Made by a program: the position numbers and the translations under genes. Below the pieces are notes generated by a model. That model worked only from the letters and a program-made list of their open reading frames with translations, was not told where the DNA came from and searched no databases. Source: Thermocrinis sp. (GTDB lineage: Bacteria > Aquificota > Aquificia > Aquificales > Aquificaceae). From it: 64,000 nucleotides of DNA. Location: positions 62,001 through 126,000 of the forward strand of contig JAJHRQ010000001.1 in NCBI GenBank assembly GCA_020833645.1, in the 5' to 3' direction. The stretch's first letter is position 1, and the number at the start of each line of letters is the position of its first letter. Positions 2,768 to 50,827 of this stretch are shown one piece after another.

Positions 2768-3253
2768 ATGAGAAGGGTATATTTTGCAGTCTTGGTTCTC
2801 TTCCTGATTGTAGGCTGTGCACGGGTTGTAAATCAAACGCCTACTCTCCCTATGAAGGGAGAGCCCTATGCGGTACTACCCTTTGAAAACTACACAGAGA
2901 CACCCTACGCAGGCTACAGAGTGGCATCCATCCTAGAGGGAGTGCTTGCAAGCAAGGGCTACAACCTGATCCCAAGGGTTTGGTCCATAAAGGAAAGGGA
3001 ACTTGCAGGAGAGGAGATTGAAAAGTTAAAGGAAAGTGCAGTAAGGAACGGGGCAAGATACATAGTGTATGGTTCCGTCAATGAGTTCAGATACAAAACA
3101 GGCTTGGACGGCGAACCGGCGGTAAGTATAACCGTCTTTGTCTATGACGCAAAAGAAAACAGATTTGTTAAAAATGTTGCGGTATCTGGTAGTGGTTGGG
3201 TGCATGAATCATTGGGAACACTCGCCCAAAAGCTTTTAAACCGGGCTTTCTGA
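2768..3253 (+). CDS. pelC: Pel lipoprotein PelC
   Basis: This is a small outer-membrane lipoprotein of about 161 residues. It has a short signal peptide ending in a lipobox (LIVGC), with the lipidated Cys near residue 16, followed by a mixed alpha/beta domain starting with AVLPFENYT. That motif is typical of the PelC/CsgG-like fold, in which PelC rings guide Pel into the PelB pore. I start it at the ATG at 2768 because AGGAGGTG sits 4 nt upstream; the GTG at 2762 would lie inside that site. The stop overlaps the pelD start (TGATG), so translation is probably coupled. The length is close to the usual 170 residues. Confidence 0.8.
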   Translation: MRRVYFAVLVLFLIVGCARVVNQTPTLPMKGEPYAVLPFENYTETPYAGYRVASILEGVLASKGYNLIPRVWSIKERELAGEEIEKLKESAVRNGARYIVYGSVNEFRYKTGLDGEPAVSITVFVYDAKENRFVKNVAVSGSGWVHESLGTLAQKLLNRAF

Positions 3254-4812
3254 TGCGTGCTTTTAGGCTTGGTGAAAGAATAACGATTGAAAAGGTTATA
3301 TTCGCAGAAATTTTCCTATTAACCACTCTTTTGTTAGCTGTGGGTTGGTATTTTAACCGAGAGGACCCATTCTTTATAAAAAGTGAATACGACTTAATAA
3401 ACCTTTTAGTGGTTGCTCTTTCCCTTTACTATGGGTATTTTGGGGCTATTGTGCTAATATCTTTTCTCTCCGCGGGATACTTTTTCTTTTACCAACCGTT
3501 TCCTCTAAATACCTTCTTGCAGAATCTCCTTTTTGCCCTTTTGTCTTCTGAATTCAGACACATATGGGACAAAAAAATAAAGCTTGCACTTGCAGATAAA
3601 GATAAAACTTACACAGAGCAGATGAAAGAGTTCCATCAAAGACAGCTCTTTAGCCTAAAGTTTGATTACTATACGAGTGTTATATTTGTAGAGATTTTTT
3701 TATTAACTGCTTTGTTTTTAGCTGTGGGTTGGTATTTTAACCGAGAGGACCCATTCTTTATAAAAAGTGAATACGACTTAATAAACCTTTTAGTGGTTGC
3801 TCTTTCCCTTTACTATGGGTATTTTGGGGCTATTGTGCTAATATCTTTTCTCTCCGCGGGATACTTTTTCTTTTACCAACCGTTTCCTCTAAATACCTTC
3901 TTGCAGAATCTCCTTTTTGCCCTTTTGTCTTCTGAATTCAGACACATATGGGACAAAAAAATAAAGCTTGCACTTGCAGATAAAACCTATGCAGAGCAGA
4001 TGATAGAGCTTTATCGGAGAGAGCTCTTTAGCCTAAAGTTTGAATACGACCTGCTGGAAAGACAGTTTGTGCTTTCTCCTTACAGCTTAAGGAATATTTT
4101 GGAATGGTTTAACGTTCCCTCTTCAAAGGCTTTCATGGAGCTGATATCAGACTTCTTCGGCGTTATATCCGCAGAGCTTTACAAGTACGAAGATGGAAAG
4201 CTTATTTCTTTGGAAAAGTGGGGTGGCGGTGTGAAGGTAGATAAAGAAGACCCTTTGATTCAGGAAGCCTTGGAGCTGAAAAAATCCTTTTACATCCCAC
4301 CCAAAGACATACTGAGAAATCTTATGAGCGAAGAGGTTAACTTTATAGCCCTTGTGGTGGCAGAGTCTTACGCGGGCAAGTTTTTACTCGCAATAAAGGA
4401 TATGGATTTCCTATACATAAACGAGGAAGTGCTATCCTACATAACGGTTCTTCTGGAACATTATGGAGACAGCATAGCCTTTGAAACTTCAGGTTTTTCA
4501 TGCACAAAGTTTTGCGATAGGGAGTTTGAACTACAAGCTTACAGGATGCAATTGCTAAAAGAACGCCTCGGAATAGACTCCTTTGTGGTTGTTTTTGAAT
4601 ATCCTCCCGAAAGAAGGGAAGAAGTGGTTAAACTAAAGAGCATGGTTAAAGGTTTAGACAGGGTTTGTATAAACGAAGACAAAGTTTTTGTCCTTTTACC
4701 CATAACGCCAAAGGAAGGAGTTGAAAGATTTTTAGAAAGGATAACAAAACACATGGACTTTTTGGAAGTAGAAGAGATAAAACCCATAGGGGAGTTTTGC
4801 AATGGTCAGTGA
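3253..4812 (+). CDS. pelD: PelD, inner-membrane c-di-GMP-receptor-like protein with duplicated membrane domain
   Basis: PelD normally has four N-terminal transmembrane helices, a GAF domain and a degenerate GGDEF domain that binds c-di-GMP to switch on Pel synthesis. Here the membrane block occurs twice (about residues 15-116 and 143-244), giving roughly eight helices, followed by a GAF-like region (about 270-410) and a GGDEF-like tail (about 420-515). The tail has no GGDEF motif, as expected for PelD. The position of the RxxD c-di-GMP site appears to read KGLD (466-469), with Lys in place of Arg, so ligand binding may be altered. The protein is 519 residues against about 455 in P. aeruginosa; without the duplication it would be 391. 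The start overlaps the pelC stop and the stop overlaps the pelE start. Confidence 0.8.
   Translation: MRAFRLGERITIEKVIFAEIFLLTTLLLAVGWYFNREDPFFIKSEYDLINLLVVALSLYYGYFGAIVLISFLSAGYFFFYQPFPLNTFLQNLLFALLSSEFRHIWDKKIKLALADKDKTYTEQMKEFHQRQLFSLKFDYYTSVIFVEIFLLTALFLAVGWYFNREDPFFIKSEYDLINLLVVALSLYYGYFGAIVLISFLSAGYFFFYQPFPLNTFLQNLLFALLSSEFRHIWDKKIKLALADKTYAEQMIELYRRELFSLKFEYDLLERQFVLSPYSLRNILEWFNVPSSKAFMELISDFFGVISAELYKYEDGKLISLEKWGGGVKVDKEDPLIQEALELKKSFYIPPKDILRNLMSEEVNFIALVVAESYAGKFLLAIKDMDFLYINEEVLSYITVLLEHYGDSIAFETSGFSCTKFCDREFELQAYRMQLLKERLGIDSFVVVFEYPPERREEVVKLKSMVKGLDRVCINEDKVFVLLPITPKEGVERFLERITKHMDFLEVEEIKPIGEFCNGQ
3334..3600 (+). repeat. Left copy of 267-bp perfect direct repeat inside pelD
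   Basis: This stretch recurs base for base at 3718-3984, an offset of 384 bp (128 codons), so the frame is kept. The flanks of the two copies are also related but clearly diverged (the helix just before reads FLLTTLLLAVGW in one copy and FLLTALFLAVGW in the other, with many synonymous changes). Identity therefore stops sharply at the core edges. Confidence 0.95.
3718..3984 (+). repeat. Right copy of 267-bp perfect direct repeat inside pelD
   Basis: It is identical to 3334-3600, including third codon positions. It encodes the second membrane block of PelD, from LAVGWYFNRED to LALADK. After the repeat the two copies again diverge (DKTYTEQMKEFHQ versus KTYAEQMIELYRR), showing an older duplication whose centre has been homogenised. 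Confidence 0.95.
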
Positions 4813-47461: not shown

Positions 47462-47493
47462 AATCAAACCTCCTTACTTATGGTGTTTGTATT

Positions 47494-47522
47494 ATTATCT
47501 TACATCTTTTTAAAAAAGTCAA
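47494..47522 (-). promoter_or_regulatory. acpP promoter, near-consensus
   Basis: On the minus strand TTGACT (complement of 47517-47522), a 17-bp spacer and GATAAT (complement of 47494-47499) form a well-spaced sigma-70 promoter with a leader of about 26 nt before the acpP ATG. Its -35 lies inside the 17-bp inverted repeat described at 47513. Confidence 0.6.
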
Positions 47523-47720
47523 GCGGTTTAAAAAGCTTGTGTTAAACTTTTCCAAGCAAGCTAAGGCTTGGCGGGAAGTTATTATTATCCTGACTTTTAC
47601 AGGCGGGGAGTGATATAATCCCGACAAGCTTTAGCTTGCTAAGGGGTTAGTGTGTCTTTTTTAAAGTTTTTTTGAAATTGAGTATCATTTGCAAGCGGTT
47701 TTAAAACCACTTGACTTTTT
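47513..47720. repeat. Nested inverted repeats upstream of the IS110-like transposase
   Basis: Outer pair: AAAAAGTCAAGCGGTTT (47513-47529) is the inverse of 47704-47720 with one mismatch. Inner pair: 47555-47575 and 47620-47640 (core AGCAAGCTAA/TTAGCTTGCT) match inversely at 19 of 21 positions. Between the inner arms lie CTGACT and, 18 bp on, TATAAT (47614-47619), a plus-strand promoter candidate. The right outer arm also forms a palindrome (AAGCGGTTTTAAAACCACTT, 47693-47712, one mismatched pair) and supplies TTGACT-17-TAAAAA toward the transposase. In IS110 elements the non-coding end encodes the bridge RNA, so this is the place to look for one. Confidence 0.7.
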
Positions 47721-47766
47721 GGGTGAAATGTGGTAAAAAAAAGGGAAAGGCGAGGAGGGATAAGCA

Positions 47767-49224
47767 ATGCGGGAGAAAGTCTTAGGCTGTGATGTTAGCA
47801 AAGATTATATCATACTTCACGATGGCAGTCAAGCATACAAGCTTAGCCTTGAGAACTTCCAAAGCATCTAAAAGCTGGTCAATAATAGCATTGTGGTTAT
47901 GGAGCAAACGGGTGCATACGGGCTTAGGTGGGGGCAAGTCTTAGAAGACTTGGGAGCAAAGGTCTATATAGCCGATGGCAAAGACTTTAAGAACTTCAAG
48001 CTCTACCAAGCGGTAAAGAAAAAAGATGATTACACGGATGCATACTATCTTAGGCTTTTCTTCTTTGAAAGACCTAAAAGAGTTTGGCGGTTTAACGAGG
48101 AATTGGCTCATCTTAGGGCTTTGATTAGGCAACATATGAGAAATGAAAAGGACATAACCAAGCATGCAAACAGATTAAGCCAATACTTGGCGGTTATCTT
48201 TCCCACTAAAAACTATTGTGATTTGGACAGAAAGAAGTTTTTAAAGGTTTTGGATGAGATAGAACAAGAGCTAAAGCAAACTCCACATGCTTTAAGTGGC
48301 TTGGCTTTGATGGAACTAAACAAGCTTAAGCTTGTGTTAGATTGGCATAGCAAACTTGAAGCTGAGATAACAAGCATAGCAAGGAACCATAAAGATTATG
48401 AAATTCTCAAGTCTTTTCATGGTTTGAACGATATTCTGATTGCTACCTTGATAGCTTACTACTGGGACATAGAACGGTTTAAGGATGTGGATAGTTTCAT
48501 TGGCTACATGGTTATGGGTGCAAATCCTGAAGTTTCAGGAACTTCACTTAACAGAATGAAAACGGATAAGGCAAGGTCAGAAGTTAAGGGCAAGTTTTTT
48601 ATGCTTTTCCTTCAGTCCCACAAAGATAACAGTCCATACAAGCCATTAATTGACTTGCTTAGGTCAAGGCTTGGCGGTGGGAATAACCAAAAGAAAAGGT
48701 ATATCAAGTTTTTAACGGACTTGCTGGAGCTTGTTTATTATGCTTTGAAGTATAGACTAAGCTTTAGCCAAGCGGTGGCTTGGAAAGTTAAGGAGTTAGA
48801 GAGGGAAAAGGCAAGGCTAAGAAGCCAGTTAGAGAGAGCAAGGGAGCAAGGGAACCAAGAGAAGGCAAGTCTTTTAGGCTGGGAGTATGAAAACATCACA
48901 TTGAATAAACAAGCTTGGGACTTGGTTTTAAGCAAGGTGGGAAGGTGTGAAGATATTCCCGACAAGTCCCCAGAAGGAGCCAAGTCCGATGGCTTGGCTT
49001 TGGATGGGGGCTTGGCGGGGCATCTACCTTATTCTTCTACTTGCTTAGAACCAAGTCAAAGCTTGGAACAAAACCAAAGCCAAGAACTGAGCAAAGAGAT
49101 AAGCCAAAGCTTGGAACCAAGCCAAACATTAAGCCAAGAACCAAGCCAAGAGATAGGGCAAGGCTTGGAGTATGCTTTAGCTGGTGGCGGTAAGAGAAAG
49201 AAAAGAAGGCGGTTAGAGAGTTAG
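47767..49224 (+). pseudogene. IS110-family transposase broken by an in-frame stop at codon 35
   Basis: The intended start is ATG 47767, with AGGAGG at 47753-47758. The frame reads GCDVSKD (first catalytic Asp, residue 9), meets TAA at 47869-47871 and then continues in the same frame to 49224. The rest holds the second acidic residue in VMEQTGAYG (E46), KKDDYTDAYY (D88/D91), completing the RuvC-like DEDD set, and the Transposase_20 region GLNDILIATLIAYYW … GANPEVSG. The piece that could start at GTG 47893 lacks the first Asp and is probably inactive. Unusually, about 75 extra residues at the C-terminus are low complexity, dominated by EPSQ/SLEQ/SQEL repeats. Codon words CAAGC and GCTTGG are shared with the flanking repeats. 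Confidence 0.85.
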
Positions 49225-49603
49225 CAAAGCAAGGGCGCGGTAGTTTATCCGAGCATTGGTTAGGTGTTTGGTTTTGTGCTATGCGGTGGTGCAAAGTGTG
49301 GGTGCTAAGCAAACAAGCTAAGCAAGGGCTTGGTCTATCTTAGCAAGCATGGGCGGGGCTTTGCTAAAACCTTTCAAAAAGTGAGGGGGTGTATTTGATT
49401 TACGGACAGGTCTTAAGTGCTTGTCTTTCAATGCTCGGAAAAAACGAAGGGCATTCTTTAACTTAGAAAGAACCTTATCAAGTGCTTGAGTTTCAGGGGT
49501 TTGATTAGCATCAAGCAGGTGCTTGTATCTCAACGGTTTTAAGCATGCTCAAGGGTGCGGGGCGGGGCTTGGTTATAACACAGTTTTTAGCAATTGTCAA
49601 TAA

Positions 49604-49646
49604 ACCGAAAAGGAAACGAAAAGCAACCGAAAAGAAAACCGAAAAG
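49604..49646 (+). repeat. Iteron-like ACCGAAAAG units, 11-12-bp period
   Basis: Units start at 49604, 49615 (one change), 49626 and 49638, all reading A(C)CGAAAAG. They are followed by a 50-bp stretch of almost only A and T (49647-49697) and then two head-to-tail TTTTTCGG units (49695-49710) in the opposite orientation. Direct short repeats beside an AT-rich tract resemble plasmid iteron origins, but no replication gene is present. Confidence 0.7.
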
Positions 49647-49764
49647 CTTTCAAATGCTACTCTATCAATGATTTGATTGATTTTTTATTTTTTGTTTTTC
49701 GGTTTTTCGGTGATAGAGAAATGTATAGAAATGCTGGGCTTCCTGCCTGCAAAAATCGTGCCAA

Positions 49765-49798
49765 GGGGGTGGGGGTGGGTCGGGTAGGCGGGTTTGGG
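49765..49798 (+). other. G-quadruplex-capable motif
   Basis: Six G-runs of three or more (49765, 49771, 49777, 49782, 49790, 49796) occur within 34 bases, separated by loops of 1-5 bases. This meets the usual G4 rule on the plus strand. Confidence 0.6.
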
Positions 49799-49805
49799 TG
49801 GTAAA

Positions 49806-49888
49806 ACCGAAAAACCGAAAAGAATTTTAGCAAGTGCTTGATTTTCAACGGTTTGACGCTTTTCGGTAGTTTTTCGGTGCCTTTTCGG
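49806..49888. repeat. Second inverted cluster of ACCGAAAA / CTTTTCGG units
   Basis: ACCGAAAAACCGAAAAG at 49806-49822 faces CTTTTCGG (49859), TTTTTCGG (49870) and CTTTTCGG (49881), the last three with an exact 11-bp period. ACCGAAAAACCG here is the exact inverse of 49700-49711. The two clusters could fold as large hairpins, with one of the GTGCTTGATTTTC repeats in the loop. Confidence 0.65.
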
Positions 49889-50077
49889 TGCTAAGAAAAT
49901 CCTTGATTTTCAACGCTTTGCCAACATCAAGCAAGTGCCTGATTTTCAACGGTTTTATGCATCTTTGCAGTGCTGGGGGTGGGGTGTTAAGCAAGGGATA
50001 AGGTGGCTTGGTTTGGTGTTTGGTTTGGTGCTAAGCAAGGGTGCAAAAGGTTTGGTTTAGTGTAGGGTGCTTGGTGT

Positions 50078-50567
50078 GGGTGCTAAGCAAGGATGCAAAG
50101 CAAGGGTGCAAAGCAAACAAGTAAGGATAGGCAACCAAGCAAGGTTAAGGTGGTGCGGGTGTATATATAACAAGCAAATGCTTGGTTTGGTGGTGGGGGG
50201 CAGGTTTTGAGATTAAGTATCAATTTCAGTTAGTGTTAAGTTTGGTGCTTGGTTTGGTGCTAAACGGATAAGCAAAGCAAGGGTGCTAAGCAAACAAGCA
50301 AGGGCTTGGTGCTGGGTGTAGGGTGCTAAGCAAAGGTGCCAAACAAGGATAAGGTGCGGGTTCCCAGTAGATAAAGCATTTCTGTAGGAACAAGAATACA
50401 GGTCGGGCGGGCGGGCTGTGGGCAGTTCAGGATGCGGTGCGGGTGCGGTGGCGGTGCGGGTGCTAAGCAAGGTGGATAAGCAAAGGCTTGGTGCTTGGTT
50501 AGGTGCGGTGTGGGTGCAATGGTAGGGTGCAAGGTTTAGGTGCTGTGCGGTGGTGGGTGCTAAGCTA
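50078..50567 (+). repeat. GGGTGCTAAGCAA repeat family
   Basis: The exact 13-mer occurs at 50078, 50281, 50321 and 50458 here and also at 49300. Near copies are at 49982, 50026 and 50555. The 19-mer GGGTGCTAAGCAAACAAGC is identical at 49300 and 50281. Units are linked by AAGCAAGG and GCTTGGT words. Spacing is irregular. Confidence 0.75.
50405..50422 (+). other. G-quadruplex-capable motif
   Basis: GGGCGGGCGGGCTGTGGG has four G3 runs with loops of 1, 1 and 4 bases. It lies in the G/T-skewed part of the island. Confidence 0.55.
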
Positions 50568-50724
50568 ACAAGCAAAGCAAGGGAGCTAAGCAGACAAACC
50601 AAGCAAGGCAAGGGTTTGGTGCGGGTGTTAATATAATGCGTAAAAAGCAAGAAGTAAGGAGTAAAGATAACAAACTAAAACTGGATATAACTTATATCAC
50701 AAACCCAAAAGCCCAAAGGTGTGT

Positions 50725-50730
50725 TATAAT
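50725..50730 (+). promoter_or_regulatory. -10 box of the tRNA-Leu/murJ transcript
   Basis: A perfect TATAAT preceded by TGTGT ends 10 bases before the tRNA, so the pre-tRNA leader is only about 3-4 nt. No clear -35. Confidence 0.6.
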
Positions 50731-50740
50731 AAATAGTAAA

Positions 50741-50827
50741 GCCGGAGTGGCGGAATTGGCAGACGCGCTGTCTTGAGGGGGCAGTGCCCGAAAGGGCGTG
50801 CGGGTTCGAGTCCCGCCTCCGGCACCA
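50741..50827 (+). tRNA. tRNA-Leu (anticodon GAG)
   Basis: It has an 87-nt class II tRNA cloverleaf. The acceptor GCCGGAG pairs with CTCCGGC. The D-arm region is GGCGGAATTGGCAGACGC, the anticodon stem CTGTC/GGCAG has loop TTGAGGG (anticodon GAG), the long variable arm is TGCCCGAAAGGGCG, and the T-arm GCGGG-TTCGAGT-CCCGC. The discriminator is A and CCA is encoded (50825-50827). It would read CUC/CUU codons. murJ starts 7 nt after the CCA. Confidence 0.97.

What the first reader, a model, noticed from the sequence alone, without database searches (positions are those of the whole stretch)
49225..50740. Gene-free island made of several unrelated repeat systems next to a broken IS110 element
About 1.5 kb between the transposase and tRNA-Leu contains no credible gene but four separate orders of repetition: 13-19-bp direct words (GGGTGCTAAGCAA), a duplicated three-repeat module, 11-bp-period ACCGAAAAG units, and G-runs. 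The CAAGC/GCTTGG words also appear in the transposase's own low-complexity C-terminal codons and in the 250 bp upstream of it. This suggests one element that has expanded its own sequence vocabulary. In a genome this compact, 1.5 kb of non-coding DNA needs an explanation (transposon end, replication or segregation locus, or selfish repeat).
Basis: partly seen in the sequence, partly recalled or inferred. Interest (0 to 1): 0.65.

Follow-up and report, generated by a model that had tools for sequence, protein, structure and literature searches.

The report
Transposon carrying a virus's replication-start DNA
The 1.5-kb gene-free stretch is the non-coding cargo of a single jumping gene that dropped into the chromosome of a hot-spring bacterium (Thermocrinis), and about 430 bases of it are a copy of the region where viruses of this bacterium are thought to start copying their DNA, so host-borne DNA may interact with viral replication.

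Summary
In detail: 49225-50690 is gene-free and repeat-rich far beyond chance. It is not an independent island. Four sister Thermocrinis genomes have acpP joined directly to tRNA-Leu, so transposase plus island is one precise ~3.2-kb insertion of an IS110-family element, 47499-50695. Its left end holds the target-binding half of a bridge RNA. The guides of three near-identical copies each match their own target; the right flank predicted for one copy was then found in empty sites.

The repeat systems have different origins. The ACCGAAAAG units, the G-run and the three-repeat module form one block (~49550-49990), 76-86% identical to the intergenic region between the divergent operons of two pyroviruses, at their GC-skew minimum. 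Palmer et al. 2020 predict that region to be the replication origin. A second module (50348-50451) is shared with a circular plasmid and both viruses. The GGTGCTAAGCAA words are the element's own 3' DNA.

Best reading: an IS110 element that captured viral and plasmid control DNA as passenger. An active role as decoy or satellite origin is possible but untested. In metagenomic contig G088 a pyrovirus runs through this block into the element's right end and host ilvE.

The parts
47490..47498 (+). Left target half TATTATTAT with TTAT core (47495-47498); -10 box of acpP on the minus strand in the empty site
   Evidence: empty site in G002/G004/G005/G006 reads TATTATTATATCAC
47494..47522 (-). Outward promoter-like site TTGACT-N17-GATAAT made across the left junction, facing acpP
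   Evidence: 10 of 12 consensus matches; same layout in G002 and C35 copies by eye; function inferred
47499..50695 (+). Whole IS110-family element, inserted between acpP and tRNA-Leu
   Evidence: flanks continuous in four sister genomes; right end shared with the G002 copy
47499..47766 (+). Left end (LE), conserved in the three Thermocrinis copies
   Evidence: alignment
47555..47640 (+). Bridge-RNA target-binding loop: outer stem, left guide 47579-47588, inner hairpin, right guide 47610-47619
   Evidence: guide-target fit and fold shared by seven elements; predicted flank confirmed
47767..49224 (+). IS110 transposase/recombinase, interrupted by TAA at 47869-47871; the remaining open frame from 47893 lacks the first DEDD aspartate
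   Evidence: Pfam DEDD_Tnp_IS110 and Transposase_20; translation
49225..49549 (+). Element's own 3' repeat words and a degenerate partial copy of the right part of the origin block (49415-49555)
   Evidence: similar words in the G002 copy
49550..49990 (+). Copy of the pyrovirus intergenic (predicted origin) block: iterons 49603-49646, 49696-49711, 49804-49822, 49858-49889; G-run ~49765-49800; CTTGATTTTCAACGG repeats 49829-49971
   Evidence: 85.6% over 396 bp to G089, 76% over 589 bp to G088
49991..50347 (+). Element-type repeat words (GGTGCTAAGCAA, AAGCAAGG)
   Evidence: block-to-repeat transition also in G088
50348..50451 (-). Module shared with the L069 plasmid, L122 and pyroviruses (core GCCCACAGC...GTTCCTACAGAAATGC...GGGAAC)
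   Evidence: 79% to L069, 94% to L122, shuffle test against G088
50452..50640 (+). Element-type repeat words, length-variable (174 bp in window where L122 has 86)
50641..50695 (+). Right end (RE) ending GGATATAACTTAT; conserved in G002, L122 and G088
50741..50827 (+). tRNA-Leu(GAG), host flank

Best explanation
Shown: positions 47499-50695 are one IS110-family element inserted at an ATTATA (-10 box) target between acpP and tRNA-Leu, with a bridge-RNA-type target loop in its left end. Its unusually long right end consists of its own repeat-rich 3' DNA, a ~430-bp copy of the pyrovirus intergenic region and a ~100-bp module shared with a plasmid and the viruses. Published work predicts that viral region to be a replication origin; this has not been tested by experiment. 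Inferred: the block entered by recombination between a copy of the element and pyrovirus DNA inside a Thermocrinis cell, because everything between recombinase and right-end core travels when the element moves. The repeats then grew and shrank by slippage or unequal recombination. In the window it is most likely a passenger now, since the recombinase carries a stop codon.
For: Empty sites in four sister genomes; shared right end with the G002 copy; guide-target fit in three copies and confirmation of a predicted flank; fold shared by seven elements. Block homology to G089 and G088; viruses identified by the DUF927-PolA protein, clamp, terminase and capsid; block between divergent operons and at the GC-skew minimum, as described for Pyrovirus (PMC7689252). 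Block absent from the 36 relatives searched, iteron pair absent from 40, block absent from the G002 copy, so the direction virus to element is the simpler one. Module.
Against: Origin function is a published prediction only. The direction of transfer is inferred. The donor-binding loop was not found. The right end is longer than the left end, opposite to the trend of the IS110 group (PMC11208160). No intact recombinase was found among the Thermocrinis copies.
Confidence: 0.8

Rival explanations
1. The captured origin is kept because it acts: a chromosomal decoy that titrates pyrovirus replication proteins (like phage-encoded resistance, PER), or a satellite origin that lets the excised circle be amplified by the virus. 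This adds to the best explanation and does not exclude it.
For: Recombinase, ends and virus-type origin in one small unit resemble the minimal PLE (PMC8263062); a 302-bp non-coding phage origin gives PER in Streptococcus thermophilus (PMC6356513). The iterons are well preserved. A second element is shared with a plasmid whose replicase is related to the viral one.
Against: No expression or infection data; the element carries no initiator gene; the recombinase is broken; the G002 copy lacks the block. The block is no more conserved than the viral genomes in general (~86%).
Confidence: 0.15
2. Pyroviruses, or a branch of them, integrate through this element: the window is a shrunken provirus that keeps recombinase, origin region and right end.
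For: G088 runs from pyrovirus genes through the block into the element's repeats, right end and host ilvE. Distant relatives of the recombinase in Aquificota MAGs are followed by HU-like and virus-like genes.
Against: No recombinase on the G088 contig. No viral gene remnant in the island. Pyroviruses are described as lacking lysogeny genes and prophages (PMC7689252). G088 could be a mis-join at a block present in both molecules, or homologous recombination at the block.
Confidence: 0.12
3. One reading: the whole island is the element's own sequence, expanded from its internal words.
For: The GGTGCTAAGCAA-type words recur in the 3' ends of other copies and vary in length.
Against: The block has a viral counterpart of 396-589 bp and the module a plasmid and viral counterpart.
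Confidence: 0.03
4. Assembly artefact joining unrelated repeat-rich pieces.
For: The genome is a 51-contig draft.
Against: Right part and flank recur in L122; block, repeats and right end recur in G088 at another locus; both are other metagenomes. The 200-kb contig is collinear with sister genomes on both sides of the element.
Confidence: 0.04

Closest known systems
IS110-family elements with bridge RNA (IS621; Durrant et al. 2024, PMC11208160; Hiraizumi et al. 2024, PMC11208158)
   Same: DEDD and Transposase_20 domains; no long terminal repeats; short core; left-end RNA with target loop whose guides match the insertion site
   Different: Right end of 340 bp (G002) to 1.47 kb (window), longer than the 268-bp left end; cargo of viral and plasmid control DNA; donor loop not identified; targets are -10 boxes
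Pyrovirus intergenic predicted origin (Palmer et al. 2020, PMC7689252)
   Same: Homologous sequence, iterons and G-run; in the viruses it lies between divergent operons at the GC-skew minimum
   Different: In the window it lies in a host chromosome inside a transposon, without viral genes
Phage-encoded resistance (PER) and PLE satellites (PMC6356513, PMC8263062)
   Same: Host-borne or mobile DNA carrying a viral or virus-dependent origin; recombinase plus origin as in the minimal PLE
   Different: No resistance or in-trans replication shown here; no initiator gene; unrelated recombinase

Membership tests
IS110 family | Recombinase with DEDD (RuvC-like) and Transposase_20 domains | tested here: met
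   both above Pfam cut-offs; one stop codon interrupts the frame
IS110 family | Bridge RNA target loop with guides matching both target halves | tested here: met
   own-target matches 9-11 nt in three Thermocrinis copies, other targets 5-7 nt; predicted flank confirmed
IS110 family | Bridge RNA donor loop matching the joined ends | tested here: inconclusive
   no convincing match found by a simple scan, which also cut the donor sequence imperfectly
IS110 family | Insertion at a short core, without long terminal inverted repeats or long target duplication | tested here: met
   junctions share only TTAT
IS110 family | IS110 group trend: left end longer than right end (a trend in PMC11208160, not a criterion) | tested here: not met
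   268 bp left end against 340 bp (G002) and 1.47 kb (window) right end
Pyrovirus predicted origin region | Sequence homology to the intergenic region between divergent operons | tested here: met
Pyrovirus predicted origin region | Lies at the GC-skew switch in the viruses | tested here: met
   cumulative minimum at 19.5 kb in G089 and 2.5 kb in G088
Pyrovirus predicted origin region | Starts DNA replication | not testable with these tools
   prediction in PMC7689252
PER decoy or phage satellite | Reduces virus yield, or is amplified upon infection | not testable with these tools
   no expression or infection data

The most novel reading that the evidence does not exclude
A bridge-RNA transposon lineage in Thermocrinis collects replication-control DNA of the viruses and plasmids in the same cells and works as a minimal satellite or decoy: the excised circle, or the chromosomal copy, is recognised by pyrovirus replicase, so the element is amplified by, or blunts, a lytic virus, and its block gives that virus a homologous entry point into the chromosome (G088 junction).
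Probability: 0.15. Interest if true: 0.88.

Novelty: new variant of a known kind. Interest (0 to 1): 0.62.

Why it matters
I know of no IS110 element described with a viral origin region in its cargo, and two searches of the held paper library found none. It links a host chromosome by sequence to pyroviruses, which were reported to have no known prophages, and supplies a defined 430-bp DNA with which their predicted origin can be tested. The three near-identical copies with three different guide pairs, each fitting its own target, are a compact natural case of bridge-RNA retargeting in a thermophile.

Tried and rejected
Degraded gene: six-frame comparison gave only non-coding homology. Known RNA family: Rfam found only the tRNA above threshold. 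Independent small transposon from the ACCGAAAAG inverted arrays: dropped once the whole block proved viral. Structured RNA at the plasmid-shared module: fold z-scores near zero and a weak consensus structure. Mu-like phage as source of the block: L122 carries such a phage next to the module, but its end repeats are different. More copies in named genomes: the single-sequence scan found none; the alignment scan found nine distant relatives. Relatives of the L069 plasmid in 64 family genomes: only L069 itself. Host copies of the module core: none convincing. Donor-binding loop of the bridge RNA: not found.

Full report
Organism. The window lies in a 1.26-Mb draft genome.

Observation. Between the transposase stop (49224) and tRNA-Leu (50741) there is no gene with a recognisable relative. 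Repetition is far above chance: 264 positions in repeated 10-mers against 35 on average and 78 at most in order-2 resamplings. GGTGCTAAGCAA occurs six times exactly and nowhere else in the held genome.

It is one insertion. In G002, G004, G005 and G006 the sequence runs straight from acpP into tRNA-Leu/murJ. The window matches them up to 47499-47504 and again from 50692. The empty site reads TATTATTATATCAC; the window has TATTATTAT|CTTACATC on the left and ACTTAT|ATCAC on the right, so the element is 47499-50695 with a TTAT core. A copy at another locus of G002 (L003) and a truncated copy on contig C35 of the window's own genome (L033) share the left end and transposase. The G002 copy has the same right end, but only about 340 bp between gene and right end.

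It is a guided-recombinase element. The protein has the DEDD_Tnp_IS110 and Transposase_20 domains and is interrupted by TAA at codon 35; the G002 and C35 copies also carry in-frame stops. The left ends of the three copies are nearly identical except in two short stretches. In each copy the first stretch equals the left flank and the second is the reverse complement of the right flank. Contiguous own-target matches are 9, 10 and 9 nt (left) and 10, 11 and 10 nt (right), against 5-7 nt for the other two copies' targets. For the truncated C35 copy the right flank is missing; its guide predicted ATTATAAACC, and the empty sites in G002 and G006 read CTAGTATTATAAACC. Four distant relatives in Aquificota MAGs match their left flanks by 8-10 nt; L148's guide fits L149's near-identical target equally well. 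All seven fold into outer stem, guide loop and inner hairpin although their outer-stem sequences differ. This is the layout of the IS110 bridge-RNA target loop (PMC11208160). The donor loop was not found.

Where it lands. The three Thermocrinis targets contain TATAAT on the strand of the left-hand gene (acpP, argF, rpmB; gene names from the translated sequence). Insertion replaces the box by GATAAT with a TTGACT 17 nt away inside the element, so an outward promoter-like site is re-created. Whether it works is inference.

What the island is made of. A scan of viral contigs for the iteron pair found two contigs with long homology to the island: G089 (85.6% over 396 bp) and G088 (76% over 589 bp). 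They are collinear viruses, about 86% identical, with terminase, capsid and sliding clamp; G088 has a 1608-aa protein with DUF927 and family-A polymerase domains. This is the signature of the proposed genus Pyrovirus (PMC7689252; 1,606 aa in its type virus). The G089 contig is a 23-kb fragment and does not reach the polymerase. In G089 the block lies between the divergent operons, and in both viruses it lies at the cumulative GC-skew minimum. Palmer et al. describe a 750-1,350-bp intergenic region there, with repeats and a skew switch, and predict it to be the replication origin. Over 403 gap-free columns the window and the two viruses are about equidistant, 85-86%. The block is absent from the 36 relatives searched, and the iteron pair from 40.

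A second shared module (50348-50451) is 79% identical to the non-coding region of L069. L069 has 55-bp terminal overlaps, so I take it as a 6,827-bp circular plasmid of another Thermocrinis. Its DUF927 protein is related to the pyrovirus polyprotein (24% over 958 aa, E 1e-57). A 65-bp core of the module also stands upstream of a promoter-like site in both viruses (local score 52 against at most 28 in 1,000 shuffles).

The remaining repeats are the element's own 3' DNA. They recur in G002 and L122 beyond what order-2 composition explains, are visible in G088, and vary in length: at the same tRNA-Leu site L122 has 86 bp where the window has 174. The plasmid's non-coding DNA shares the same words on the same strand (143 shared 8-mers against 59 expected, maximum 86 in 200 resamplings).

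How it works. Shown: guided insertion of a unit whose cargo slot, between recombinase and right end, holds viral and plasmid control DNA. Inferred: capture by recombination with pyrovirus DNA in the cell, drift in repeat number, and present-day passenger status because the recombinase is broken. Open: whether the viral origin copy does anything. Precedents for active roles are PER (PMC6356513) and PLE (PMC8263062).

The G088 contig. Here the pyrovirus runs from its operons through the block into the element's repeats, right end and ilvE. Either a virus joined the chromosome at the block, or the assembler crossed over at a block present in both molecules. No recombinase was found on the contig. 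I cannot decide between the two.

Verdict. The 'island' is ordinary in being the 3' part of an insertion element and unusual in its content: a copy of a predicted viral origin inside a bridge-RNA transposon.

Noticed in passing
47494-47522 (and L003, L033 left ends): The three Thermocrinis insertions hit the TATAAT box of the left-hand gene (acpP, argF, rpmB) and re-create a promoter-like TTGACT-N17-GATAAT across the junction; this could explain how insertions ahead of essential genes are tolerated.
   Followed up: partly
L069 (G005:C63, 6882 bp): Probably a circular 6.8-kb Thermocrinis plasmid (55-bp terminal overlap) with an 1126-aa DUF927 protein related to the pyrovirus polymerase polyprotein.
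   Followed up: partly
L146, L147, L148, L149: Relatives of the recombinase in Aquifex/Aquificota MAGs, with matching guides, are followed by HU-like genes and gene runs that look virus-like, so this recombinase lineage may serve as integrase of larger elements.
   Followed up: partly
L122:9267-9550: At the same tRNA-Leu site a Mu-like phage (TniB/MuB-type ATPase, head protein) with GTGTCCCATTTTTTTGTCAAA end repeats abuts the module, as if inserted into the island.
   Followed up: partly
window ~3250-4000: A near-exact tandem duplication of roughly 330 bp inside a gene (GGTTGGTATTTTAACCGAGAGGACC...); real or assembly error unknown.
   Followed up: no
window 49045-49170; L003 2650-2800: The recombinase C-terminus is a low-complexity EPSQ-type repeat whose copy number differs between the window and G002.
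   Followed up: no
L003 ~3060-3150: The G002 copy carries an inverted copy of its own left end near its right end, with the ATCTTACATCC left-terminal sequence repeated next to it.
   Followed up: no
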